Both the position numbers and the translations under genes were made by a program. This document shows, in pieces, positions 4,441 to 19,608 of a DNA stretch of 22,134 nt. Location: positions 1 to 22,134 of IMG/VR virus record IMGVR_UViG_3300010885_017335. One strand, written 5' to 3'. Within the stretch, counting starts at the first letter, position 1; each line of letters begins with the position of its first letter. Under the pieces are notes generated by a model. That model searched no databases. It saw only the letters and a list, made by a program, of their open reading frames with translations, and was not told where the DNA came from. The stretch comes from a virus.

Positions 4441-5256
4441 ATGCGTATATTTTTAGCACTGATGCTGGCTCTAGCATCTACAACCACTTTTTCTTGGGAT
4501 CAACGCCCTCCCCTACCCGTACAAGCATGTCAAGTTCATAGCCCTTATGGATTTGCACAAACTGCACGTACTGCACAACCAATCTGCCGCGAAGCATATC
4601 TTGTAGCATATGATGCTCCTGTTAAGATTCCAGTATATGTAGCATATACATTACTACCACAAAATGCAATAGGGTGTTTCCCACGTACTAATGCGTTTGT
4701 TGCTGACAAGAGTATAGCTGGCGGTGCAACACCGGATGACTATGCTGGTACAGGATACGATAAAGGACATGCTGTTCCTGATGGTGACTTGAGTTGGACT
4801 CAACAAGTAGAGTATGAGAGTTTCTTAATGACTAACATGTATCCACAACATGGTTCATTGAATCGTGGTATATGGAAACTATTAGAGACAAGTGTTAGAG
4901 GTTGGGCAGTCCAATTAAAACAACCCCTAACTGTTTATGTAGGTGCATTGTATGGTGCAGGTGATTTGACTATTGGTAGGGGAATTATCGTTCCGCATGC
5001 TTACTACAAGATTGTAATTAATCAAACTACAGGACAAGTTGCTGGATGGGTATTCCCTCATACTAAACCATATGTTAACTTGGGTAATGATTTGACTAAG
5101 TTCCGTGTATCGGTTGCTGATATACAGAAACAAGCGGGAGTAACTTATGCTTTCCCTAAAAACGCTACAGAATTGCAGCCGGGAAAAGAATGGCCAGTTG
5201 ACTATGGCGCATTAACTAACGCTAAACGTGCTAAATGCGGAAAGAATGCTGAGTAA
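4441..5256 (+). CDS. Secreted DNA/RNA non-specific endonuclease (NUC1/Serratia-type beta-beta-alpha-metal)
   Basis: The 271-aa product begins with a likely signal peptide (MRIFLALMLALASTTTFSW), so the mature enzyme would be exported. The NUC signature appears as GYDKGHAVPDGDLSW at residues 105-119, where the family usually has DRGH. His110 would be the general base. ESFLMTNMYPQHGSLNRGIWKLLE at 126-149 supplies the metal-binding Asn141 and the conserved Asn/Glu helix. Conserved Cys residues (30, 49, 79 and near the C-terminus) suit an oxidised periplasmic protein. The reaction would be Mg-dependent hydrolysis of DNA and RNA. A late promoter drives it. Its stop codon abuts the convergent o-spanin gene with no gap. 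A role in clearing host DNA at lysis is plausible but inferred. Confidence 0.86.
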   Translation: MRIFLALMLALASTTTFSWDQRPPLPVQACQVHSPYGFAQTARTAQPICREAYLVAYDAPVKIPVYVAYTLLPQNAIGCFPRTNAFVADKSIAGGATPDDYAGTGYDKGHAVPDGDLSWTQQVEYESFLMTNMYPQHGSLNRGIWKLLETSVRGWAVQLKQPLTVYVGALYGAGDLTIGRGIIVPHAYYKIVINQTTGQVAGWVFPHTKPYVNLGNDLTKFRVSVADIQKQAGVTYAFPKNATELQPGKEWPVDYGALTNAKRAKCGKNAE

Positions 5257-5544
5257 TTATTTGCCAGCTTTATCAAAAATATCTTTTTGAATTTTATACC
5301 ACTCTATCCATGAATCGTTTTTAACAGCGCATTCATAGTAAGTGGTATAATTTTTTATGATTGTCTTGGTTATGTCGCTTAACTTTGGTTCTTCTTCTAA
5401 TTTGTCTAATTGAGGACATTTTACTAAAAGTTGTTCCGGTGCTTCTGGAAACTTAACAGTTACTGGTACAATAGTACTACATCCTGTTGCTAAGAATGCA
5501 AGTATGATAAAAATTGCTAGTACAAATAATTTAAGTAAATTCAT
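5257..5544 (-). CDS. Probable o-spanin (Rz1-like outer-membrane lipoprotein)
   Basis: The 95-aa product has a lipoprotein signal: a hydrophobic run at residues 5-19 followed by the lipobox LATGC, so Cys22 would be lipidated. The mature protein starts with a Pro-rich stretch (VPVTVKFPEAPEQLLVKCPQL) resembling Rz1-type o-spanins. Its C-terminal half is helical and longer than classical Rz1. It overlaps the upstream two-TM coiled-coil gene by ATGA, the usual linkage of Rz/Rz1 pairs. The pair would fuse inner and outer membranes in the last step of lysis, which implies a Gram-negative host. Identification is from topology and neighbourhood, not strong sequence similarity. Confidence 0.68.
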   Translation of the reverse strand: MNLLKLFVLAIFIILAFLATGCSTIVPVTVKFPEAPEQLLVKCPQLDKLEEEPKLSDITKTIIKNYTTYYECAVKNDSWIEWYKIQKDIFDKAGK

Positions 5545-5987
5545 TTTGGTGCCTCCGCCGCATCATTCAATGCTTTAATAAAATCTTTAGGGATCTCACA
5601 TTGTCCACCGGGGGCAAATTTAGTGTCATACTTGACTATTTCACGGTCAATATATTTTACAATATTTTCTCCACGTGTCCGTACAATCTGAGTTTTTGTA
5701 ATTACTTTAGTAACTATCTTTGTATTCTCTTTGGCACTTTTAAGTTCAGCCTCAGCTAATTTAGCTTCAACTTCTTTGACTTTAAGCTGCCAGGCTGCAT
5801 AATCTGCTAATCCACCTTCTAAATATAAGGCAAAAGCAAGAACAATCAAACTAATGACACGTATTGGAAGAACATACATTTTGATTCCAGGAACCATTCC
5901 TAATACAAATCCGGCTACTGTTCCCAGTATACCACCGATTAACATTGCATGAAAGACCCAATCGGGCAAAAATGATATTATCCACAT
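5541..5987 (-). CDS. Probable i-spanin (Rz-like), two membrane segments plus periplasmic coiled coil
   Basis: Residues about 12-33 and 39-57 are hydrophobic membrane segments. From 67 to 120 the protein is a heptad-like charged helix (VKEVEAKLAEAELKSAKENTK). It ends with GGQCEIPKDFIKALNDAA, similar to the C-terminal ends of Rz-type proteins. Classical Rz has one N-terminal TM; two segments here are unusual. The downstream lipoprotein overlaps by 4 nt. The ATG at 5987 has no Shine-Dalgarno, and a late box (AATAAATA) ends 5 nt upstream, so late transcription would start on the ATG. The start also lies 4 nt after the epimerase stop, so early read-through is possible, with late-specific expression superimposed. 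Confidence 0.66.
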   Translation of the reverse strand: MWIISFLPDWVFHAMLIGGILGTVAGFVLGMVPGIKMYVLPIRVISLIVLAFALYLEGGLADYAAWQLKVKEVEAKLAEAELKSAKENTKIVTKVITKTQIVRTRGENIVKYIDREIVKYDTKFAPGGQCEIPKDFIKALNDAAEAPK

Positions 5988-6954: not shown

Positions 6955-7169
6955 AACGTAAATAATCCTTTAACATATAACGCAATCATAATAATATTCA
7001 ATACCCACATGCTTGGTTGTTTCCACATAAAGCCTAACCACATCCACAAGAATGCAGTTATGATACCTATATATTTGTTCAATGGTATAATATCATGGCT
7101 AGTAAGATACACTGTTGCAAGTGCAAAAACAGTAGCCGACCACTTAACAATAAATTCTAATTTATTCAA
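6951..7169 (-). CDS. Small membrane protein of unknown function (72 aa)
   Basis: Most of the 72 residues are hydrophobic. There are about two to three membrane segments (roughly 9-24, 34-49 and 53-70), linked by short polar pieces including SHDIIPLNKY and a WKQP turn. No family is recognised. It lies between an 87-aa gene (8-nt overlap) and the epimerase (ATGA overlap), so it is translated as part of the thyA chain. Small multi-TM proteins near lysis genes raise the question of a holin. Here the position inside an early-promoter operon and before a sugar enzyme argues neither for nor against. Confidence 0.6.
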   Translation of the reverse strand: MNKLEFIVKWSATVFALATVYLTSHDIIPLNKYIGIITAFLWMWLGFMWKQPSMWVLNIIMIALYVKGLFTL

Positions 7170-7425
7170 AACGTAACCTATAATACATTAATTGTTCTGA
7201 TGTAAGATAAGCACGAATTTCATATCTCCAACCATATCCATCAGGAATTCTATGCCAGCTTGCGGTGGGTTCACTATTATTCATTACCCAATTACCTGAA
7301 TCTGTTTTCTCCCACTCCCAAAGATGTTGTGATGCAAATAAATCAGGATCCTCAACATCACCCATCATAAACTCATGCACCAGATAAGTGAATACCTTAG
7401 TATCAGAATCTTCATACATTATCAT
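7162..7425 (-). CDS. Small soluble phage protein of unknown function (87 aa)
   Basis: No known domain is recognised. The protein is acidic and aromatic-rich, with VHEFMMGDVEDPDLFASQHL in the first half and a Trp-rich second half (WEWEKTDSGNWVMNN, then SWHRIPDGYGWRYEIRAYL), ending in a YYRLRFE strand. Such compact Trp-rich proteins are common phage accessory genes. The start is fixed by the ATGA overlap with the thyA stop at 7422-7424, which implies translational coupling to thyA. A second ATG two codons in cannot be excluded. Confidence 0.62.
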   Translation of the reverse strand: MIMYEDSDTKVFTYLVHEFMMGDVEDPDLFASQHLWEWEKTDSGNWVMNNSEPTASWHRIPDGYGWRYEIRAYLTSEQLMYYRLRFE

Positions 7426-8662: not shown

Positions 8663-9349
8663 TTAGGCAGTGGTCTTAGTTTTTCTAGGTGCTTTAGCTG
8701 GTGCAACAACTGCTTCAACAACTTTAGCTTTTTTTGCTTTAGTTGTTTTTGCGGGTGCTGGTTGCAATGAAGGAGCCATTTGAACAGCTTCATCACGCAA
8801 ACGTTTAGATTCTGCAAGTAAACCATTTGCTTCACGTTCCATTTTTTCAGCTTGTTCAATACGTTGTTTAGCAAGAACCATGTCATCAAGTACAGCGTTA
8901 GATACGATTGGATCACGCATTTTACGTGCTACTTCTGCAGGAGTTCTCATTCCTGCACTTTGATCCATGTCAGCCATTTTTCTAACTGCATCCTCACCCT
9001 GTTTCATATCATTTAGTATCTTGTTTAATTCATCAAGTCTAATTGTAGTAGTAGGATTTGGTGTTACTAACACTTGAGCAGTTTGTACTTTTTTCAACAT
9101 ACCTTCTCTGTGCAACACTTGAAGAATGATTTTACCATCTTGTGTGTAACTACGGTTTAATGCATCAGCTAGGTGTTCGCTGGCTTGACCGATATCGCTT
9201 TCAATGCTTCTTATCAATGCATCATGTAATTGGGCATGAAGTGTTTCTGTATTAACAACTAAACCCATATGCGGCTCGCCGGGGATTTCCCGAAATACGA
9301 TTGCCACTTTTCTATCACCCATTTTACCAACATGTCTTAAAAAACTCAT
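8663..9349 (-). CDS. Conserved phage protein of unknown function with Lys/Ala-rich basic tail (228 aa)
   Basis: Residues 1-100 form a mixed domain: MSFLRHVGKMGDRKVAIVFREIPGEPH opens it, then SIESDIGQASEHLADALNRS and QVLVTPNPTTTIRLDEL. Residues 105-190 are largely helical and possibly coiled coil, rich in Met, Glu and Arg (MEREANGLLAESKRLRDEA). From about 195 the tail is Pro/Ala/Lys-rich (KTTKAKKAKVVEAVVAPAKAPRKTKTTA), resembling histone-H1-like DNA-binding tails. I recall homologues in cyanophage-type genomes without assigned function; binding to nucleic acid is an inference from the tail. AGGAG precedes the ATG. Just upstream lies a small imperfect hairpin (9359-9378). Another frame is open across the C-terminal third, but it only shadows this one. 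Confidence 0.7.
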   Translation of the reverse strand: MSFLRHVGKMGDRKVAIVFREIPGEPHMGLVVNTETLHAQLHDALIRSIESDIGQASEHLADALNRSYTQDGKIILQVLHREGMLKKVQTAQVLVTPNPTTTIRLDELNKILNDMKQGEDAVRKMADMDQSAGMRTPAEVARKMRDPIVSNAVLDDMVLAKQRIEQAEKMEREANGLLAESKRLRDEAVQMAPSLQPAPAKTTKAKKAKVVEAVVAPAKAPRKTKTTA

Positions 9350-9829: not shown

Positions 9830-9961
9830 TCAATCATCGTTGTTTTTAACAGTAGTTAAGGTATGTTTTAATAATCTATAAAAAACATAGAATATACCAG
9901 CAACACTTCCTAGTAGGAATAGTGTACCAAAAATATTAGCAAGAGTAGTTATAGTTTCCAT
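9830..9961 (-). CDS. Small single-pass membrane peptide (43 aa)
   Basis: The ATG at 9961 opens a 43-codon frame: METITTLANIFGTLFLLGSV, then AGIFYVFYRLLKHTLTTVKN, then NDD. Residues about 7-28 form one membrane segment with a small-residue face, followed by a basic then acidic tail, so the C-terminus is probably cytoplasmic. AAGGAAA lies 4 nt upstream, and the start is 9 nt after the VWA gene stop. Its stop ends 8 nt before the start of the next gene. The tight fit on both sides and the good Shine-Dalgarno support a real gene. Function is unknown; a partner of the VWA protein or an inner-membrane anchor are possibilities. Confidence 0.6.
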   Translation of the reverse strand: METITTLANIFGTLFLLGSVAGIFYVFYRLLKHTLTTVKNNDD

Positions 9962-9970
9962 TATGTTTCC

Positions 9971-11260
9971 TTATTTTTCATCATAAATTGCGTAAGTACC
10001 GAACGGGGGATTCGGGTTTTTGTCACCGTGAATGATCCAAGTAGTATCACAATAATCAGGGTCACCCCAGCTACCGAAAGGATATCCATCAGTAAACACA
10101 ATCAAACGATTAGGTTCAATTGCATTTTCTTTCAAGTAATCAAAGATACAATCAAAGTCAGTACCACCACCGCCTTGAGGTTCGTATTCATCAATACGAT
10201 CCATGTTCTCACTTGAGAAGTCTTGTGGGTTATATGTGTTAGTATCAAAACAGAATACATGTACCTTATAACCATCAAAGCTATCCATCATACCAGCAAT
10301 CTCACCCAAGAATGCTTGTGCTTGTGCATTGCTAATACTACCTGACATATCAAGTGACACAACAACGTCAATCTCTTCACCCGGTGTCATGCCGGGCATG
10401 ATAGCATCCATGTGCCAGCCTTTACGATTGGCTCGCATCCAGCTAAAGTCAGTGCGAATGCAACTAGTCAAGTTAGTTTGAATCAGTTCACGCCAGGGCA
10501 TAACTGGGTCAGTAACTTGTTTAATCAATCGTTCAACACCTGCAGGGATAGAACCTGCCTCAGCACTTTGTGCGGCTTGCAGAATAGCTTGTTTCATTTC
10601 CTGACGTGCTTGTTCACGTTCTTCGGAACTCATGCGTGGGCGTTTGCTTTTTTTGTCGCTATCACCGTCTCCATCACCCTCACCTTCGCTATCACCATCG
10701 CTATCACCATCCATATGCTCATCAAGCATTTGGTCAATTAGTTTATCCAAATTAATTTTGTCTGCTTTGTCGTATAAGTCATCATATACTGCCTCAGCAG
10801 TCCAGCCTTCATATTTTCTTTCATACAAGCAAGGCACCGATGTAATGAATTGGCCTACATTGTGCTTTTTCAAGTCAGCATTCACACAATAGTCATCAGC
10901 AATATTCCACAACTGAGGATCACGTGTACCTCTACGACCCATGTGGTCATATACAACATGTAACACTTCATGACCTACTAAGAATTCAACTTCTTTAGGC
11001 TTCAACAACATAATAAAGCGGCTATTGTAATAAAATTTTGATCCATCTGTTGCCGCTGTTGCACACCATTCATCAGCGTTAACTAATTTCATGCGAGTAG
11101 CAAGATTACCAAAGAAACTATGACGTAACAACAAACCAATACGTGCGGACACTAATCGTTCACGTGCTAGATTATCTACCTTAGCATCATATGGACCAAT
11201 AAGATTGTCAAATTTCTTATTGCGTCTTTTCTTTTTTGTAGGGGCAATTACGTCACTCAT
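9971..11260 (-). CDS. VWA-domain protein with DUF2201-type zinc-protease motif
   Basis: This 429-aa protein has two recognisable halves. Residues 1-165 resemble DUF2201 putative metallopeptidases, with the motif HEVLHVVYDH at 97-106 (two zinc His, catalytic-type Glu98, a further His106) and NIADDYCVNADL after it. Residues about 183-202 are a Gly/Asp/Ser/Glu repeat linker, and 210-250 a charged helix. The von Willebrand A domain starts near 297, with an intact MIDAS: DMSGS (304-308), Thr367 in GGTD and Asp391 in FTDG. In bacteria such proteins partner MoxR-type AAA+ ATPases; a MoxR gene lies directly upstream at 11399. It is transcribed from its own sigma70 promoter with AAGGAAA before the ATG. 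Whether the protease site is active is unknown. Confidence 0.88.
   Translation of the reverse strand: MSDVIAPTKKKRRNKKFDNLIGPYDAKVDNLARERLVSARIGLLLRHSFFGNLATRMKLVNADEWCATAATDGSKFYYNSRFIMLLKPKEVEFLVGHEVLHVVYDHMGRRGTRDPQLWNIADDYCVNADLKKHNVGQFITSVPCLYERKYEGWTAEAVYDDLYDKADKINLDKLIDQMLDEHMDGDSDGDSEGEGDGDGDSDKKSKRPRMSSEEREQARQEMKQAILQAAQSAEAGSIPAGVERLIKQVTDPVMPWRELIQTNLTSCIRTDFSWMRANRKGWHMDAIMPGMTPGEEIDVVVSLDMSGSISNAQAQAFLGEIAGMMDSFDGYKVHVFCFDTNTYNPQDFSSENMDRIDEYEPQGGGGTDFDCIFDYLKENAIEPNRLIVFTDGYPFGSWGDPDYCDTTWIIHGDKNPNPPFGTYAIYDEK
10655..10712 (-). repeat. Short tandem-like repeat encoding the Gly/Asp linker of the VWA protein
   Basis: ATCACC-like hexamers recur within about 60 bases and encode alternating Asp, Gly, Ser and Glu (residues about 183-202). 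The stretch separates the protease-like and VWA halves and is a probable site of length variation by slippage. Confidence 0.6.
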
Positions 11261-11288
11261 GTTGTTTCCTTAATAATTTAATACTGAT

Positions 11289-11317
11289 AGTATAGCAGAT
11301 GTTTGATTTATTGTCAA
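11289..11317 (-). promoter_or_regulatory. Sigma70-type promoter for the VWA gene with overlapping inverted repeat
   Basis: The minus strand has -35 TTGACA (11317-11312), a 17-bp spacer, and -10 TATACT (11294-11289) preceded by TGC, an extended -10. Predicted +1 is 11282, with a 22-nt leader to the ATG at 11260. An inverted repeat, ATACTGATAGTAT (11281-11293), overlaps the -10 and +1 and could be an operator. Confidence 0.8.
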
Positions 11318-11318
11318 T

Positions 11319-11353
11319 AAAAAAGAGCGGGGGCATTCACACCACCCCCGCTC
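11319..11353 (-). terminator. Rho-independent terminator after moxR
   Basis: On the minus strand a 9-bp GC-rich stem (GAGCGGGGG / CCCCCGCTC) closes an 11-nt loop and is followed directly by six T residues (11324-11319). The T-run ends one base from the -35 of the VWA promoter, so the element ends moxR transcription just where the next unit begins. Confidence 0.88.
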
Positions 11354-11356
11354 AAA

Positions 11357-11395
11357 GGTGTCTTTCGACACCGAGGGAGTCAACTTTCGTTGCCC
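11357..11395 (-). ncRNA. Candidate structured RNA: two GAAA-tetraloop hairpins in the moxR 3' region
   Basis: Starting 3 nt after the moxR stop, the minus strand first folds GGG-CAAC[GAAA]GTTG-ACT-CCC (11395-11375), a 7-bp stem with a 3-nt bulge. After two bases, GGTGTC[GAAA]GACACC (11372-11357) makes a perfect 6-bp stem. Both loops are GNRA tetraloops, and the terminator follows 3 nt later. It could be a 3'-UTR stabiliser or the body of a small RNA released from the moxR mRNA. I do not recognise a named RNA family. Confidence 0.5.
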
Positions 11396-11398
11396 AAA

Positions 11399-12499
11399 TC
11401 AATTACCTGCATCAACGATATATTTACCGTATTTCTTGTGAAACTCATCAAAGTTTTTCAACTGACTAGGTTCGATTGGAAGCAAATATGTTTTAAGTGC
11501 AATCTTTGCCGCAACCACGACCAACTCAGTCTCAAAGTTTGACATTGTGAAGTCAAAGAAGTTTTGAGCCATTTCGTGGAACTTCTTGCTATCAACTTTT
11601 TTGTTTTGGTGTGCATCACGCAATTCATAGCACATACCAATTGCAAGTGAATACATTGCAGAAATTTCTTTAACTGCAAGGTCTTTCACTTTACCTGCAA
11701 GAATGTCGCTAGGGTCGGGCATCTTACCTGCTACCTTGCGGTGTGCTTTAAACTTAACTGCAAGACCTTCACCAACAGCACCTGCTACCAAATTGAATTG
11801 AGTATCCTCATCCATTTCTGTATCGCTAATCAAATCGCTAACAAAACACCAGCTACGGGGTGTTGCAAATGCACGACTTGAGGATTTGCTATCAAAATCA
11901 TACAAATCTTGTTTAGCAAACGACAAGTAACCCACAACGTCTTTGTGAATACCTTTGTTTGCGGCCCATTGTTGCCATGACGTAAAGTCAGGGCGCATTT
12001 CTAAATGAATGAAACGATTAGCAAGGGGCATTGGCATACGATATGTAACACCTTTGTCACTATCACGATTACCTGCCGCTACAATAACAACGTTATCGGG
12101 CAAGAAATATTTACCAACACGGCGATTCAAAATAAGTTGATAACCTGCAGCCTGTACTGCTGGGGAGGCACTGTTCATTTCATCTAAGAACAATACAACA
12201 ATGGGATACTTGCTTGCGAGTTCCTCATCGGGCAAGTCTACTGGGGGAGCCCAGTCCATCTTGCTGATATCTTTGTTGAAGAACGGGATACCACGAATAT
12301 CAGTTGGTTCCATTTGCGCCATACGCAAATCAATAACATGACCTTTGAGTTCATCGGCAATTTCTTGCACGACCTCGGACTTACCGATACCGGGAGGGCC
12401 CCAGAGAAAAACTGGGCGTTTAGTTTTGAAAGCACTTAGAATTGCTTTACGGGTTTGAACACTAGTAATAGTGTGATTGTCAGATACTTGTGATGCCAT
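11399..12499 (-). CDS. MoxR-type AAA+ ATPase
   Basis: This 366-aa ATPase carries Walker A GPPGIGKS (residues 34-41), Walker B VVLFLDEMN (101-109), a sensor-1 region VIVAAGNRDSDKG, and ANRF, the arginine-finger segment. The DIRGIPFF and APP pieces (67-86) are typical of MoxR/RavA-like proteins, which remodel or activate VWA-domain partners. The VWA/DUF2201 gene immediately downstream is the obvious partner. The C-terminal 150 residues are a helical lid and extension with no match I can name. Translation starts at 12499 with AAGGAG at good spacing. Its own sigma70 promoter and a strong terminator isolate it as a single-gene unit, so its level can differ from that of the VWA protein. Confidence 0.9.
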   Translation of the reverse strand: MASQVSDNHTITSVQTRKAILSAFKTKRPVFLWGPPGIGKSEVVQEIADELKGHVIDLRMAQMEPTDIRGIPFFNKDISKMDWAPPVDLPDEELASKYPIVVLFLDEMNSASPAVQAAGYQLILNRRVGKYFLPDNVVIVAAGNRDSDKGVTYRMPMPLANRFIHLEMRPDFTSWQQWAANKGIHKDVVGYLSFAKQDLYDFDSKSSSRAFATPRSWCFVSDLISDTEMDEDTQFNLVAGAVGEGLAVKFKAHRKVAGKMPDPSDILAGKVKDLAVKEISAMYSLAIGMCYELRDAHQNKKVDSKKFHEMAQNFFDFTMSNFETELVVVAAKIALKTYLLPIEPSQLKNFDEFHKKYGKYIVDAGN

Positions 12500-12539
12500 T
12501 GTTGACTCCTTGTTGATGGCTTATTGATAAAGAAAACAT

Positions 12540-12568
12540 AGTATAACAATAAAATGATTTACTGTCAA
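12540..12568 (-). promoter_or_regulatory. Sigma70-type promoter for moxR
   Basis: The minus strand has -35 TTGACA (12568-12563), a 17-bp spacer and -10 TATACT (12545-12540). The -35 immediately follows the stop codon of the HExxH gene. Predicted +1 is 12533, leaving a 33-34 nt leader with AAGGAG. In that leader GCCAT can pair with ATGGC at the start codon. Confidence 0.78.
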
Positions 12569-13030
12569 TCATTTTTTGCGTTTTTTCGCTTTTTGGATAA
12601 CATTGTCCAACAATGCACATGCCAACTCACCTTCACGGCGAAAAGCTTCCTTTTCCCATGGTCGCTTGAGATATGCAACTGAATATGGCTTACCCAACCA
12701 AATACGTCTTACTTTGCCGTTACGTGACATTTCACCACGATATTGACCACGAACATATTGTTTTGCATGAACCATTTCATGGGCAAGTGTCATAAGCATT
12801 TGAGGTAATGCTAAAGCACTGTCCACTGCTATACTGATTTCTTTGTCACCGGTCTTGGCGCAGACACCGTTGTTACCGTCTCTTTGACGTAGTTTGGGGG
12901 CTATACAAACGTATACTTTGTACTTAAACTTTTCAATATTTAAGTATTTTGCATAGAATTTGGCAGTCTTTTGAAACATCTGGACCTTTTCAGGGCTAGT
13001 ATTTCCATGTGCTAAGATTTTTATTTCCAT
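12569..13030 (-). CDS. HExxH zinc metallopeptidase-like protein (153 aa)
   Basis: LAHEMVHAKQYV at residues 82-93 is a zinc-peptidase HExxH motif (His84, Glu85, His88). RPWEKEAF at 123-130 offers the likely third ligand, Glu126 or Glu128, the arrangement seen in small phage SprT/gluzincin-like peptidases. The upstream half, FKYKVYVCIAPKLRQRDGNNGVCAKTG, forms strands; the C-terminus is basic (KAKKRKK). The frame is open to 13144, but the ATG at 13030 is chosen. A perfect sigma70 promoter lies inside the longer frame, and its +1 falls on the 13030 A. The N-terminus MEIKILAHG is also more protein-like than the extension. The message is probably leaderless. It may belong functionally with the neighbouring MoxR and VWA genes. 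Substrate unknown. Confidence 0.75.
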   Translation of the reverse strand: MEIKILAHGNTSPEKVQMFQKTAKFYAKYLNIEKFKYKVYVCIAPKLRQRDGNNGVCAKTGDKEISIAVDSALALPQMLMTLAHEMVHAKQYVRGQYRGEMSRNGKVRRIWLGKPYSVAYLKRPWEKEAFRREGELACALLDNVIQKAKKRKK

Positions 13031-13036
13031 GCTGTA

Positions 13037-13065
13037 AGTATAGCAGATAGTCCATTTACTGTCAA
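13037..13065 (-). promoter_or_regulatory. Sigma70-type promoter for the HExxH gene, leaderless geometry
   Basis: The minus strand has -35 TTGACA (13065-13060), a 17-bp spacer and -10 TATACT (13042-13037) preceded by TGC, then TACAGC and ATG. Predicted +1 is 13030, the A of the start codon. The first 12 bases (TTGACAGTAAAT) are identical to those of the moxR promoter. Confidence 0.78.
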
Positions 13066-13122: not shown

Positions 13123-16100
13123 ATGAGTTGGCCAGCCAATCCACTTAACGGACAGCAAGTAACAGTTAACGGTCTTTTATATTCTTGGAATAATAACAAT
13201 AAGACTTGGGACCGCATTGGATATGTCTCCTCAGCCGTTACTACTGATGAAACCGTTCTATCCAAACTAACTGTCACAGAACGTGCAACCCTAGGAGATA
13301 TAGCCAATGTGCATATTTCGGGTGGTACTGCCGGGCAAGTAATAAAAACAGACGGAACCGGTAACTTAAGTTGGCAGACAGAAGCAGTACTAAGTCCCGG
13401 TGGATCCAATACATTTGTTCAATTCAATGATGAAGGGACTGCCTTAGGTGGTGTTGCAAACTTTGCGTTTGATAAGACATCCAATACACTTAGTGTTGAT
13501 TATGCTAACCTAGTATTAACTAGTTATGCAAGCAGTCAACCTAATATCACAACAATCGGAGCCTTAAGTAACCTAGAGGTCACTGGTGACCTAACCGTTT
13601 ATGGTAACACTGACTTAGAAGGTAATTTACACATTGGCGGGACAGTTATTTCTGATGGTAGGGTTAGCGCAGGTGCGTATGCTGCACCAGCAGCCAATAA
13701 TCAAGTTTTACTAAACAAATCAGGTAACATCGACGGTACTGCTAATTTAACGTTTACTAATAGTAATACGCTTGCTGTCATCGGTAATGTTACTGTAACC
13801 AACAATATTACTGCAGGTACAGTTACAGGAACATTAACAACTGCCGCACAACCCAATATCACTACTGTTGGTACACTCACAAGTTTAGCAGTTACTGGTA
13901 ACATAGTTGCCGGTAATATCAAAGTTGCGTTTGCAAATGCTAACATATACAATGCACCCAATTCAACTGCTAATACACAAATATTAGTAAACAAAGCCGG
14001 TAACATCGGTAGTTACAGTAACTTGTTCTTTGATGGTAACTTATTAACTGTTACCGGAAATATTCAATCAAGAAATGCTAATTTAGGTAATGCGGTTATT
14101 GCCAATTACTTTACTGGTAATTTAACATCTGGTCCACAAACAGGTATCACAAGTGTTGGTACATTAGATAGTTTAGCAGTTACTGGAAATATTACAAGCG
14201 GAAATGCTAATTTAGGTAACTTAGCTACCGCTAATTATATTACAGGAACTTTAACAACAAACGCACAACCAAATATTACAAGTGTAGGTAATTTAACTAA
14301 TTTACGTGTTTCAGGTAACGCCAACATAGATGGTAATTTATATATAGGCGGAACAACTATTGGTGCTGGTGGAATTACTGCTCCAACGTTCACTGGTAAC
14401 GTTAATGGTAACATTAACGGTATACTTACTGCTCCTGGTTCAGACAAACAAATTCTATTTAATAAAACAGGTAACGTAGGTGCAAGTGCTAACATAACAT
14501 TTACTGAAGGTAGCGGTGCAATTAGACCTGCTAACTTAAATGTTATTGGAACTATCAGGGCAACTTCAATAACTGCAACTAACACATTATCAGCACCAAA
14601 CTTAGCAGGTACATTAACTTCTAGCGCAGGATATCAACCTAATATTGTTCAAGTAGGTACACTTAATTCATTGACAGTAGACGGTGGTGATACAATTTTT
14701 AGAAATACAATCATTGATACTACATCAAATGTAAAAATTAGAGGACCGTTGATTCCAACAGGGAATATGGTGGAAGATATTGGTACACCAACGCTTCATT
14801 GGCGTGATTTATATCTTGCTGGTAAAACTATTAAATTAGGTACTTCAACTATTACTGCTACTAGTCAAGGTGGTATTTTAGTTAGTGGTGCTGTAACAGC
14901 TACAGGTGGTGTTTCTAGTGACACTACTGCTACAGGTTTTACATTTGTAACATTGACTGCAACTAGCACCGGCGGTGTATCTACACTAACTTTTGAAGAC
15001 CAAACAGTTCCACCGTTTGTTGTTGGCGGACTTATTACTGTTAAAGGTGTAACTCCAACAGGATACAACGGAACATTTACTGTTACTGTGGGCACTGTTA
15101 GAAGTGTTTCATATTTAAAAACAGTAGTAGGTTCACAATCAGTAGCAGGCACAGTTGAATCCGGTGGAAATCCCCCGTTCACTGTTACTAGCCAGTTGAT
15201 GGTTGCAAATTTAAATGTTGAATTCTTACAAGGGTATACACCTACAACAATTGATGTTGCTAATACAATTGTATTGCGTGATTCACGTAGCAGTTTTAGT
15301 GCAAATGTAATTACTGCTAATTCTATCGTTGGTACTAATCCATTAAATCCAACAGTAGACATAGCCAATACAGTATTAGCAAGTTCTCAACCCAATATTA
15401 CAAGTGTAGGTACACTTACTAATTTAAATGTTACTAATCTTATTGTAGCCGCTAATATTGATATCAATGATTACGTTGATGCAGGATGGGTAAGAGCGAA
15501 CATACGTGATTCAGATGGTTATCTTGGTTCTAAGCTTGTTGGAGAAGTAGCTTATGCTGCCGTAGCCAACAATGTATCAGGATCAAACGTAGTTGGTCAA
15601 GTGTCCAATGCGTTAGTTGCTGGAACTGTTTATACTCATGCACAACCTGCAATTACTAGCGTAGGTGCTTTAACAAGTTTACATGTTGCTGGTGATGCTA
15701 ATGTTGACGGTAATTTATATGTAGGTGGCACTACAGTCAGTGCTGGTGGGTTATCTGCTTCTACAATTTCTGGTACGATTTCCGGAACATTTATATCACC
15801 CGGATCAAATTCAGAAATATTAATAAACAAACAAGGTGTGATTGGTACTGATAGTGACTTCAAGTACAACCAACTAACCAAATCACTAGCCATTGTAGGT
15901 AAGTTTACCTCACAAGATGCTAACTTGGGTAACGCAGTAGAATCTAATTATTTCTTAGGAAATGGTAACTTCTTAACAAATATTCAAGGATTAAATGTTA
16001 CCGGTACAGTGGCTCTTGCAACAAAAGCAGGAACAGTTACTACAGCCGCACAACCAAATATCACTAGTACAGGCACATTAACAACACTACATGTATCAGG

Positions 16101-19100
16101 TGATGCTAATATTGACGGTAATATATATATTGGTGGTGTTACGGTAAGTGAAGGTGGATTATCTACACCATCTATTGTTATTGATAAAGGTCCAATTACT
16201 ACCGATCAACCATTCTCAATTAATGAAGAATGGAATAATAGTTTAGTTAGTTTTACATCATTCCAACAAGAAATTATTGATACCGCAAGCGATTCAACAT
16301 CATTACTAGCAGAGTTTAATGTTAACAACATAAATGTATTCAAAATTGACAAGAAGGGTAATGTTTGGGCTAAAGACATTACAGCAAGTAATGTTGCAGG
16401 CACAATTACATATTCTTACCAGCCATATATTACAAGTCTTGGAACGCTTAGTTCATTAAATGTATCAGCTAATATTAATTCAGGTAATGCTAACTTAGGC
16501 AATGCTGTTATAGGTAACTATTTTGTAGGCAATGGTGTTTACTTAACTGGTTTACCAAAACCAACAGAAATCAAAGATGACACTAATACTAGCAATGTAA
16601 AAGTTGAACTTGACGGGAATATAACAGTATCTATTTCTGGTACAACCAATGTTGCATTGTTTAGTGGTTCAAACCTTACAATCAAAGACACAATTATATC
16701 TGCTAATGCTAACTTAGGAGATGTAGTAAGAGCAAACTATTTTATTGGTAATGGCAATTCATTAGCAAATCTAACCGGTGCAAATGTTACCGGCACTGTT
16801 CCTTCAGCTACAGTAGCTACAACAGCGGGTACTGTCACTGCAAGTAGTCAACCAACGATTACAAATATTGGAACATTAGTTTCGTTAGCAACTATTAATA
16901 CAGTTAATGCTAGTTTAGGAAACAGTGTAACATCAAATTACTTTGTAGGTAAGATTGCAACCAGTGCAAACAATCAAAATAATATTACAACTGTAGGCAC
17001 ACTTACTGGATTGACCACTGTTGCTAGTGCAAACCCAAGCTTAGGTAATGCAGTAACTGCTAATTTCTTTGTTGGTGACGGCTACTATCTATATAATATT
17101 GTAGGTAGTAACGTTGTTGGTGCAGTAGCAAGTGCTACAGCAGCCACAACAGCAGGTACTGTTACCGCAAGTAGTCAACCAACAATTACAAGTTTAGGTA
17201 CATTAACCAATTTAGATGTTTCAGGCACTACAACAACAAAAGATATAACTATCACCGGTAACTTGACTGTATCCGGTGACACAATAACTGCTAACGTCAC
17301 TGGTTTAGTAGTACAAGACCCATTAATTGAAATGGGCGGCAACTTAAATGGAACATTAACTACTAATGATGGTTACGACCGCGGCACAATAATGCATTAC
17401 TATGATACTGGCTCTGCAAGTCAAACTGAAGCATTTATGGGTTGGAAGAACTCAGCTAAAGAATTCGTATTTGCAAGTAAAGCAACGATTGCAACTAACA
17501 TTGCAACAATCGTTAACTTAGGCAATATCAAGGTTGGCAATGCTAACGTTACAGGCAATCTTAAAGTTGGTGGCAACTTGATTGGTATACTGGATGCTAC
17601 GTCTAGTTCTCAACCAAACATTAGTAATATCGGCAAATTATCTACGTTAGTGGTAGGTAATACAACAAACTACGCAACGCATGGTAATGGTACTATTACA
17701 ACAAATGGAAATATAACAATTACAACTGGTTATTATTTTGTAGGTGATGGTAGTAAATTAACAGGTATTGATACATCTAGTCTTAAAAATGGTACTAGTA
17801 ACATGTTCATTTATAATAATGACAATGTTGCGTTCAGTATAAACGGTACTACTAATTCCGCAGTTATCACAAGTACAGGTATTGTTACTATAAATGCTAA
17901 TCTATCTGCTAATTTAGATGCAGGCAATGCGTTTGTTACAGGGACTGTTAGGGCACCAACATTAGTTGCTAACATAGCAGATGGTACAGCTCCATTAACA
18001 ATAACAAGCAAAACACGTGTAAATAATCTTAACGTTGATTACTCTAACGTAAGTGATTACACTGCACTTAAGAACACAAACACTGGTACATATTATCCTG
18101 CATTAGTAAGTGGTGTAACTGATGGTAATTATCAGTTTGCAGGTAATTCTACACTATCATATAACGTAGCTACAGGTAACTTAAGCGCAACTCTACTAAC
18201 GGGCACCTTAACAACAGCATCACAACCTAATATCACTAGTATTGGTAGATTAACTACATTAACAGTAGGTGGACTCTCAGCTAATACAATCATTGACAGT
18301 TCAGGTGTAAATGCAAATGGTATAGTAACTTCAATAGATTTGAAGGTTGAAAATCCTAGCTTTGGTTCTGGTTCAGGTACTGTTAACTTCATCAAAACAG
18401 CTAACGTATCATTAGGTGGTATTGCTAACTTACATATTTCTGGTGGTTCGTCAGGTGACTTTATTCAGACAGACGGCGCAGGTGTTCTTGGTTTCGCTAA
18501 ACCAAAAGCAAACGTCATAACAACAGTAACCAATCTTGTAGCTGGTTCTGGTATTGAGGTTGTTTCTGACTTTACTAATACTAGTTTTCCAGCAGGTAAG
18601 TTTACAATTAATCAATTAGGACCAGTAGCAATATCAGTAACTGATAGCTGGTCAATTGGAGGTAGCACTGTAGGTACTAGTAAAAACGCATATATTGATT
18701 TCACTACTACTACCGTTAATACAGCAAACATTTCAATAACAATTAATTTAGTAAATGCTACGTTTGACGTTAAGGCAACCGATACTATTGTTATTGGTGG
18801 CATAGCAATAACCGGTACAAATATCACTGGTCTAGGAATTACTGGTACAGGGGGAACTTATATCATCAATAGTACTCTACTAAATAGCATATCCGGTGGT
18901 AGTGCTATACAAACTAACGCTTCTAGCACAGTTTCTGTTAATTTGACTACCACTAGAGGATCATATATAGCGACAGGTACAACATTGACAAACGTTCAGC
19001 AAACACCATTCAGCGTGAGTTTATCAGGAGGATTTCCAAGTTCTTCAGTTCCTTATTGGGCCACTACACAAGCGTTTAATTGGAATATGACGCCGGTTGT

Positions 19101-19608
19101 TGGTACAGTTGTTTCAGGTAATGTTACATATGGTGCGGGGATATCATTAACAAGCACAGGTGCTACCAGTGGATCTAGTGCTTCAATAAACAGTTTAGTA
19201 AGTTATACAATCACTACCACTGACTATCGTGGTACTGGTTTAAACGGCGGGGGAACTAAAACACTTCCCACAACAACTGCTACAGTCGCGGCAGCTACAA
19301 GTTATACTCCGTTGTTCTATAAAACAACTACAACAAACACACCCCCAACACTTACAACAAGTGATAGTTATTTACCATATGCTTATGCATTAGGGCAAGG
19401 TGCTACTACTCCTAGCGTTACTTCTAGTTACTTATGGATAGCTACCCCAGGGACTACATCACACACTTGGCAATTCATTGCATTTGGTAATCCTGCAACA
19501 AAAACTCCTGACGTAGGACCTAGTACAATTACTATTTCAGGACAAACATATAATTTGTATGGGTTTACAAATTATAACCAAGCAACAGCATTATATACGG
19601 TAACATAA
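13123..19608 (+). CDS. Giant modular tail fibre (2161 aa) with repeated SQPNITxxGTL units
   Basis: The start (MSWPANPLNGQQVTVNGLLYSW) resembles virion-attachment ends of environmental phage fibres. ISGGTAGQVIKTDGTGNLSW is at 66-85, with a variant at about 1766-1794. The shaft from about 137 to 1711 carries 14 copies of a (S/A)QPxITxxGxL unit, usually followed by a V-x-G strand. It also has seven or more NANLGNxVxxNYFxGNG units. Inserted modules include HWRDLYLAGKTIKLG (559), a VGGLITVKGVTPTGYNGTF domain (606-682), a WNNSLVSF...FKIDKKGNV domain (1037-1086) and VQDPLIEMGG (1397-1456). The last 330 residues lack these repeats and are probably the receptor-binding end. A late promoter and AAGGAA precede it. 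A second fibre gene follows after one base. Confidence 0.85.
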   Translation: MSWPANPLNGQQVTVNGLLYSWNNNNKTWDRIGYVSSAVTTDETVLSKLTVTERATLGDIANVHISGGTAGQVIKTDGTGNLSWQTEAVLSPGGSNTFVQFNDEGTALGGVANFAFDKTSNTLSVDYANLVLTSYASSQPNITTIGALSNLEVTGDLTVYGNTDLEGNLHIGGTVISDGRVSAGAYAAPAANNQVLLNKSGNIDGTANLTFTNSNTLAVIGNVTVTNNITAGTVTGTLTTAAQPNITTVGTLTSLAVTGNIVAGNIKVAFANANIYNAPNSTANTQILVNKAGNIGSYSNLFFDGNLLTVTGNIQSRNANLGNAVIANYFTGNLTSGPQTGITSVGTLDSLAVTGNITSGNANLGNLATANYITGTLTTNAQPNITSVGNLTNLRVSGNANIDGNLYIGGTTIGAGGITAPTFTGNVNGNINGILTAPGSDKQILFNKTGNVGASANITFTEGSGAIRPANLNVIGTIRATSITATNTLSAPNLAGTLTSSAGYQPNIVQVGTLNSLTVDGGDTIFRNTIIDTTSNVKIRGPLIPTGNMVEDIGTPTLHWRDLYLAGKTIKLGTSTITATSQGGILVSGAVTATGGVSSDTTATGFTFVTLTATSTGGVSTLTFEDQTVPPFVVGGLITVKGVTPTGYNGTFTVTVGTVRSVSYLKTVVGSQSVAGTVESGGNPPFTVTSQLMVANLNVEFLQGYTPTTIDVANTIVLRDSRSSFSANVITANSIVGTNPLNPTVDIANTVLASSQPNITSVGTLTNLNVTNLIVAANIDINDYVDAGWVRANIRDSDGYLGSKLVGEVAYAAVANNVSGSNVVGQVSNALVAGTVYTHAQPAITSVGALTSLHVAGDANVDGNLYVGGTTVSAGGLSASTISGTISGTFISPGSNSEILINKQGVIGTDSDFKYNQLTKSLAIVGKFTSQDANLGNAVESNYFLGNGNFLTNIQGLNVTGTVALATKAGTVTTAAQPNITSTGTLTTLHVSGDANIDGNIYIGGVTVSEGGLSTPSIVIDKGPITTDQPFSINEEWNNSLVSFTSFQQEIIDTASDSTSLLAEFNVNNINVFKIDKKGNVWAKDITASNVAGTITYSYQPYITSLGTLSSLNVSANINSGNANLGNAVIGNYFVGNGVYLTGLPKPTEIKDDTNTSNVKVELDGNITVSISGTTNVALFSGSNLTIKDTIISANANLGDVVRANYFIGNGNSLANLTGANVTGTVPSATVATTAGTVTASSQPTITNIGTLVSLATINTVNASLGNSVTSNYFVGKIATSANNQNNITTVGTLTGLTTVASANPSLGNAVTANFFVGDGYYLYNIVGSNVVGAVASATAATTAGTVTASSQPTITSLGTLTNLDVSGTTTTKDITITGNLTVSGDTITANVTGLVVQDPLIEMGGNLNGTLTTNDGYDRGTIMHYYDTGSASQTEAFMGWKNSAKEFVFASKATIATNIATIVNLGNIKVGNANVTGNLKVGGNLIGILDATSSSQPNISNIGKLSTLVVGNTTNYATHGNGTITTNGNITITTGYYFVGDGSKLTGIDTSSLKNGTSNMFIYNNDNVAFSINGTTNSAVITSTGIVTINANLSANLDAGNAFVTGTVRAPTLVANIADGTAPLTITSKTRVNNLNVDYSNVSDYTALKNTNTGTYYPALVSGVTDGNYQFAGNSTLSYNVATGNLSATLLTGTLTTASQPNITSIGRLTTLTVGGLSANTIIDSSGVNANGIVTSIDLKVENPSFGSGSGTVNFIKTANVSLGGIANLHISGGSSGDFIQTDGAGVLGFAKPKANVITTVTNLVAGSGIEVVSDFTNTSFPAGKFTINQLGPVAISVTDSWSIGGSTVGTSKNAYIDFTTTTVNTANISITINLVNATFDVKATDTIVIGGIAITGTNITGLGITGTGGTYIINSTLLNSISGGSAIQTNASSTVSVNLTTTRGSYIATGTTLTNVQQTPFSVSLSGGFPSSSVPYWATTQAFNWNMTPVVGTVVSGNVTYGAGISLTSTGATSGSSASINSLVSYTITTTDYRGTGLNGGGTKTLPTTTATVAAATSYTPLFYKTTTTNTPPTLTTSDSYLPYAYALGQGATTPSVTSSYLWIATPGTTSHTWQFIAFGNPATKTPDVGPSTITISGQTYNLYGFTNYNQATALYTVT
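13537..18261 (+). repeat. Degenerate protein-level repeat array in the large fibre
   Basis: Fourteen copies of the QPNIT-type unit were counted by eye, for example SQPNITTIGAL, AQPNITTVGTL, AQPNITSVGNL and SQPTITSLGTL. They alternate with NANLGN-NYF-GNG and NIDGNLYIGGTTVSAGGL units. Spacing is irregular because other modules interrupt the array. The DNA copies share words such as AATGCTAACTTAGGTAA and so could recombine. Confidence 0.75.

What the first reader, a model, noticed from the sequence alone, without database searches (positions are those of the whole stretch)
9830..13030. Phage cluster of MoxR ATPase, VWA/zinc-protease protein, HExxH peptidase and a membrane peptide
MoxR-VWA pairs in bacteria act as chaperone or stress-remodelling systems. 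Here the VWA protein itself keeps an HExxHxxxxH motif and an intact MIDAS, a second HExxH peptidase sits next door, and a 43-aa membrane peptide follows. This could be a phage-borne proteolytic or remodelling machine acting on host proteins, or a counter-defence device. All parts have early-type promoters.
Basis: partly seen in the sequence, partly recalled or inferred. Interest (0 to 1): 0.65.

Follow-up and report, generated by a model that had tools for sequence, protein, structure and literature searches.

The report
Phage MoxR ATPase with metallopeptidase-VWA partner
A large freshwater phage carries a protein-remodelling motor (a MoxR ATPase) and a partner that combines a zinc-peptidase-like domain with an adhesion domain; the pair is widespread in phages and already described, and what is new here is mainly that it is driven by strong early-type promoters and that the two extra genes beside it are optional.

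Summary
The genes are real. The core is a two-gene pair: a MoxR-type AAA+ ATPase (11399-12499) and a DUF2201 protein (9971-11260) with an N-terminal HExxHxxxxH domain and a C-terminal VWA domain with intact MIDAS. It is widespread: about 800 phage records, including N4 gp24/gp25, RaK2, PA5oct and Vequintavirinae, and bacterial operons. Iyer et al. 2021 described it in group 2.2 jumbo phages and proposed virion assembly plus proteolytic processing; their exemplar (Atu_ph07) is a detected homologue.

The other parts are accessories. The HExxH peptidase (12569-13030) adjoins in 49 of 119 loci and lies over 130 kb away in two of four large contigs with a strong match. The 43-aa membrane peptide was found in 11 of 81 loci. 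A better conserved neighbour is the coiled-coil gene 8663-9349.

The promoter claim holds for three genes: near-consensus sigma-70 sites precede peptidase, moxR and VWA, conserved across the lineage and almost absent from downstream genes. The peptidase promoter predicts a leaderless mRNA.

Best reading: an early-expressed, MIDAS-dependent remodelling machine, in which the zinc domain probably clips or presents the client. The client is unknown. Counter-defence is unsupported. Ordinary as a system; function is open.

The parts
11399..12499 (-). MoxR-type AAA+ ATPase (366 aa), phrog_1297; Walker A GPPGIGKS, Walker B LFLDEMN
   Evidence: nearest solved AAA module is midasin/Rea1, E 3e-17
9971..11260 (-). 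Metallopeptidase-VWA protein (429 aa): DUF2201_N with HExxHxxxxH (aa 97-106), acidic linker of low model confidence (about aa 179-203), VWA with MIDAS D304/S306/S308/T367/D391
   Evidence: AlphaFold2 mean pLDDT 79, pTM 0.55, Foldseek hits to VWA domains including MDN1/Rea1-MIDAS
12569..13030 (-). Small HExxH metallopeptidase (153 aa), HEMVH...PWExEA; optional neighbour
   Evidence: weak profile similarity to MJ1213
9830..9961 (-). 43-aa single-TM peptide; optional neighbour
13037..13065 (-). Sigma-70 promoter TTGACA-17-TATACT of the small peptidase; -10 ends 6 nt before ATG, so a leaderless transcript is predicted
12540..12568 (-). Sigma-70 promoter of moxR (11/12)
11289..11317 (-). Sigma-70 promoter of the VWA gene (11/12)
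11325..11353 (-). Intrinsic terminator after moxR (11 pairs then TTTTTTATTG); with the next promoter it makes moxR and VWA separate transcription units
8663..9349 (-). Coiled-coil protein (phrog_15894), a more consistent downstream neighbour than the membrane peptide; relatives follow VWA in RaK2, phAPEC6 and Vibrio 2.275.O

Best explanation
A new member of the known phage MoxR plus DUF2201 (metallopeptidase-VWA) pair. Shown by sequence: both proteins, all catalytic and MIDAS residues, near-invariant pairing, separate sigma-70-type promoters. Inferred from relatives such as NorQ-NorD and midasin: MoxR forms a hexameric ring, the VWA protein docks on it, its MIDAS metal grips an acidic residue of a client, ATP hydrolysis twists or pulls the VWA part, and the tethered zinc domain clips or holds the exposed client. 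Made early by host RNA polymerase, it acts before or during phage replication. The client is more likely a phage-made or conserved core complex (replication, nucleotide metabolism or an assembly intermediate) than a host-specific defence protein. The neighbouring small peptidase and membrane peptide are accessories.
For: Families and motifs. MoxR upstream of VWA in 145/160 viral loci and on the same strand in 76/80 bacterial loci; near 1:1 presence by phage genus, e.g. Escherichia 214/214, Pseudomonas 112/112, Klebsiella 70/70. MIDAS DxSxS conserved in all 23 named phages. Midasin AAA is the best solved relative of MoxR and MDN1-MIDAS is among the Foldseek hits of the VWA protein. NorQD mechanism: PMC13036017. 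Sigma-70 sites before moxR in 48/66, VWA 55/74, peptidase 14/16, against at most 2 loci for most other genes and 8/75 for ORF 7162-7425. N4 gp24/25 are middle transcripts (PMC4193335). Recurrent replication/nucleotide neighbours: thymidylate synthase, dCTP deaminase, DNA polymerase, helicase. MoxR and VWA rank second and third in conservation in the neighbourhood (84% and 78% median).
Against: No expression, interaction or phenotype data. Complex formation was not modelled. The catalytic Glu is Gln in Atu_ph07 (HQILH), so proteolysis is not needed everywhere. MoxR was found in CsCl-purified phAPEC6 virions (6 peptides) and carries an ESI-MS/MS note in PA5oct, which favours virion assembly. Early promoters are inferred from consensus only, and were weaker or absent in most other phages checked.
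Confidence: 0.5

Rival explanations
1. Virion-assembly chaperone with proteolytic maturation, as proposed by Iyer et al. 2021: MoxR-VWA helps assemble tail or other structural parts and the zinc domain processes them.
For: Published proposal with ATV p618/p892 as precedent (PMC7824862); MoxR in phAPEC6 virions and MS-tagged in PA5oct; virion genes close by in RaK2 and GAP32; a mid-expressed structural module near gp24/25 in roseophage RPP1. From general knowledge, some T4 assembly chaperones are made early, so early promoters do not exclude this.
Against: Shared by T4-type jumbo phages and N4-type podoviruses with unrelated virions; the VWA partner gp264c is absent from the phAPEC6 virion list, while thymidylate synthase is in it, so carry-over is possible; neither protein appears in the RPP1 virion table.
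Confidence: 0.3
2. Early host-takeover or counter-defence machine that dismantles or cleaves host proteins.
For: Strong early-type promoters; optional extra peptidase with a leaderless early-type promoter; Iyer et al. suggest patchy phage zincins target host proteins.
Against: Near-universal and highly conserved in phages of very different hosts, also chromosomal in bacteria; no defence-family match for VWA and only weak AAA-level ones for MoxR.
Confidence: 0.12
3. Metal-insertion or enzyme-activation chaperone (NorQD/CbbQO/CobST-like), the HExxHxxxxH site being a metal carrier rather than a protease, serving a phage metalloenzyme.
For: Best-studied MoxR-VWA pairs insert metals or activate enzymes (PMC13036017); Atu_ph07 keeps the three His but not the catalytic Glu; nucleotide-metabolism neighbours.
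Against: HExxH is conserved in 89 of 90 homologues; no specific client metalloenzyme is consistently linked.
Confidence: 0.08

Closest known systems
Group 2.2 jumbo-phage MoxR + metallopeptidase-vWA pair (Iyer et al. 2021, PMC7824862; ASV44729.1/ASV44728.2 of Atu_ph07)
   Same: Same two proteins, same domain fusion, same order; Atu_ph07 matches at 36% and 34% over nearly full length
   Different: Window protein keeps HExxH while Atu_ph07 has HQxxH; strong sigma-70-type promoters here; additional small peptidase and TM peptide
Phage N4 gp24/gp25 (Schitoviridae)
   Same: Homologous adjacent pair, gp25 with PF13203 + PF09967
   Different: 27-28% identity; middle transcripts in N4, next to dCTP deaminase rather than thymidylate synthase
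NorQ-NorD, CbbQ-CbbO, RavA-ViaA (bacterial MoxR-VWA chaperones)
   Same: MoxR ATPase plus MIDAS VWA partner
   Different: From general knowledge, their VWA partners lack the DUF2201_N zinc domain; their clients are respiratory enzymes or rubisco
Midasin/Rea1
   Same: Closest solved AAA module to MoxR and a MIDAS that hands force to a client
   Different: Single giant eukaryotic protein for ribosome assembly, no zinc domain
ATV p618/p892 (archaeal virus)
   Same: Viral MoxR-VWA pair, cited
   Different: No peptidase domain; archaeal tail development; not compared here

Membership tests
Phage MoxR + DUF2201 metallopeptidase-VWA pair | MoxR-type AAA+ with Walker A and B | tested here: met
Phage MoxR + DUF2201 metallopeptidase-VWA pair | Partner with PF13203 N-terminal HExxH domain and PF09967 VWA domain | tested here: met
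   (E 5e-45, 2e-14)
Phage MoxR + DUF2201 metallopeptidase-VWA pair | Complete MIDAS DxSxS-T-D | tested here: met
Phage MoxR + DUF2201 metallopeptidase-VWA pair | Adjacent, same strand, MoxR first | tested here: met
Phage MoxR + DUF2201 metallopeptidase-VWA pair | Physical complex and ATP-driven remodelling of a client | not testable with these tools
Virion-assembly chaperone | Needed for or present in particles | tested here: inconclusive
   literature on relatives only: MoxR homologue in phAPEC6 virions, VWA not listed; neither in RPP1
HNH endonuclease (RefSeq/PHROG label of the VWA family) | HNH domain | tested here: not met
   Pfam finds only DUF2201_N and VWA-type or M48 peptidase domains in the window protein and four named-phage homologues and N4 gp25
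Anti-phage defence or counter-defence system | Match to a known defence family | tested here: not met
   no PADLOC hit for VWA; MoxR best E 7e-6 to DolB over the AAA core only; peptidase only E 0.008 to DrmD. Counter-defence families are not covered by that library
SprT/zincin small peptidase (12569-13030) | HExxH active site with zincin fold | tested here: inconclusive
   HEMVH plus PWExEA invariant or nearly so; model pLDDT 93 but no Foldseek hit below E 1e-3; weak profile hits to MJ1213 and SPRTN

The most novel reading that the evidence does not exclude
In this T4-related jumbo lineage the pair is an immediate-early, ATP-driven metalloprotease acting on a host or replication target rather than a virion-assembly factor, supplemented in some members by a second zincin made from a leaderless early mRNA.
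Probability: 0.25. Interest if true: 0.6.

Novelty: new member of a known kind. Interest (0 to 1): 0.33.

Why it matters
The pair sits in roughly 800 sequenced phage records and in N4, a genetically tractable phage, yet its client is unknown and its VWA protein is widely mislabelled 'HNH endonuclease'. The conserved early-type promoters found here argue against taking the published virion-assembly idea as settled, and the question is directly testable in N4 gp24/gp25.

Tried and rejected
Fixed four-gene machine: rejected, since peptidase and TM peptide are optional. Counter-defence family: no match in PADLOC. HNH endonuclease label: no HNH domain. T4-type late promoters (TATAAATA): none in the window and none exact before these genes in any locus, so no late class could be assigned. 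Structural placement of the small peptidase by Foldseek: no significant hit. Bacterial context of the pair (one Comamonas locus read): uninformative. Published N4 knock-down data: the CRISPRi-ART passages found mention only rIIA/rIIB and the capsid gene for N4. Two alignment calls failed because match ranges crossed stops and were redone from ORFs. The PA5oct omics paper is not held.
Full report
What is there. The window is a 22,134-base IMG/VR virus record, probably a fragment. Large contigs carrying close homologues of the VWA gene reach 230-367 kb, and the eight checked all have a T4-gp23-type major capsid gene, so this is very likely part of a T4-related jumbo phage. On the minus strand, in transcription order, lie a small HExxH peptidase (13030-12569), a MoxR-type ATPase (12499-11399), a metallopeptidase-VWA protein (11260-9971) and a 43-aa single-TM peptide (9961-9830). 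Family scans: MoxR = phrog_1297 (E 2e-99) and several AAA Pfam families; VWA protein = PF13203 (E 5e-45) + PF09967 (E 2e-14), phrog_1314 (E 4e-110); peptidase = phrog_10499 (E 5e-14), nothing over the Pfam cut-off; TM peptide = only weak hits. No meaningful PADLOC match.

Is it conserved? tblastn finds the VWA protein in 790 and the MoxR in 846 of 50,697 phage records, with matching counts by genus (Escherichia 214/214, Pseudomonas 112/112, Klebsiella 70/70; Vibrio 97/114). In 160 viral loci from two scans (some contigs appear in both) MoxR is found in 145, always upstream on the same strand, 40-1605 nt away; of the 15 without, 14 have under 1 kb of upstream sequence and one (L171) lacks it within 3.5 kb. 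In bacteria 77 of 80 loci also have MoxR, mostly touching or overlapping the VWA gene. The motif HExxHxxxxH is present in 89 of 90 VWA proteins from a search seeded on other peptides plus named phages, and MIDAS residues in all viral loci where the columns are covered. The second viral scan and the bacterial scan were seeded on these motifs, so their conservation figures are biased upward. Among 23 named phages all keep DxSxS, 20 keep HExxHxxxxH, two keep HExxH without the third His spacing, and Atu_ph07 has HQxxH. That last phage is the exemplar of the published description.

What is not core. The small peptidase is found near MoxR, mostly within 100 nt, in 49 of 119 loci with at least 1 kb upstream. 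In the four large contigs with a strong match it lies beside the pair in two and more than 130 kb away in two. The TM peptide is detected in 11 of 81 loci, which may be an undercount for so short a protein. The downstream coiled-coil gene 8663-9349 is in 79 of 81 loci, and relatives follow VWA, after one or two small ORFs, in RaK2, phAPEC6 and Vibrio 2.275.O, so it is the better third-partner candidate.

Promoters. The three best sigma-70-like sites in 10 kb stand before peptidase, moxR and VWA. Sites of at least 11/12 occur before moxR in 48 of 66, VWA in 55 of 74 and peptidase in 14 of 16 comparable loci, but in at most 2 loci for most other genes and 8 of 75 for ORF 7162-7425. A terminator follows moxR. 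These are consensus matches, not measured promoters, but the conservation is strong. In named phages upstream regions are more variable. Before the peptidase the -10 box ends exactly 6 nt before ATG, so transcription would start at the AUG. Across the lineage 43 of 329 promoter-ORF pairs have exactly this spacing, against 2 and 4 at 5 and 7 nt, in two main families (the peptidase and an 84-aa protein). Many of the 43 come from related loci, so they are not independent events.

How it most likely works. The nearest solved relative of the MoxR profile is the midasin AAA ring (E 3e-17). The VWA protein profile and model resemble MIDAS domains of integrins, MDN1/Rea1 and others; the model is confident for the zinc domain and much of the VWA domain, with a low-confidence acidic linker between. 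By analogy with NorQ-NorD, where a VWA finger enters the AAA pore and ATP hydrolysis twists the VWA domain against an anchored N-terminal domain (PMC13036017), the phage ring would move the VWA domain relative to the zinc domain while MIDAS holds a client. This is inference; no complex was modelled.

Early machine or virion assembly? Iyer et al. 2021 proposed virion assembly with proteolytic processing (PMC7824862). For it: MoxR gp265c gave 6 peptides in CsCl-purified phAPEC6, PA5oct MoxR carries an MS note, and virion genes lie close by in RaK2 and GAP32. Against: VWA gp264c is not in the phAPEC6 list while thymidylate synthase is; N4-type podoviruses share the pair but not the virion; N4 gp24/25 are middle transcripts; neighbours are repeatedly thymidylate synthase, dCTP deaminase, DNA polymerase or helicase. 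Early synthesis does not by itself exclude an assembly chaperone. I lean to an early or middle function with an unknown phage or core client (0.5), then virion assembly (0.3). Host-directed counter-defence is little supported because the pair is near-universal and highly conserved (MoxR 84%, VWA 78% median, against 54-59% for spanin and the coiled-coil gene).

Novelty. The pair and its domain fusion are published; this is a new member in an uncultured jumbo-phage lineage. Details that I did not find in the papers read are the conserved sigma-70-type promoters, the optional status of the peptidase and TM peptide, the Glu-to-Gln change in the published exemplar, and the leaderless-promoter class.

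Noticed in passing
window 13037-13065 and loci such as L002, L025, L048, L064: Sigma-70-type promoters whose -10 box ends exactly 6 nt before ATG, predicting leaderless early mRNAs: 43 of 329 promoter-ORF pairs in the lineage, mainly the small peptidase and an 84-aa family.
   Followed up: partly
phrog_1314 and records such as NC_071039, NC_019526, NC_019401: The metallopeptidase-VWA protein is labelled 'HNH endonuclease' in many phage records, but Pfam shows no HNH domain in those checked.
   Followed up: yes
window 4441-5256 (+): DNA/RNA non-specific endonuclease (PF01223, E 2e-39) with an apparent signal peptide, on the opposite strand next to a spanin-like pair, highly conserved where present.
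   Followed up: no
window 5257-5987 (-): Rz/Rz1-like pair: membrane protein with PHROG spanin hits and a small protein with a lipoprotein-like signal.
   Followed up: no
L083/L090, Atu_ph07 VWA protein: The published exemplar of the family has HQILH in place of HExxH (catalytic Glu to Gln) but keeps the three His.
   Followed up: yes
window 8663-9349 (-): Coiled-coil protein phrog_15894, a syntenic neighbour of MoxR-VWA across several jumbo phages; its phAPEC6 relative gp262c was seen in virions with one peptide.
   Followed up: partly
window 13123-19608 (+): 2161-aa repetitive open frame, probably a fibre protein, divergently oriented from the peptidase gene.
   Followed up: no
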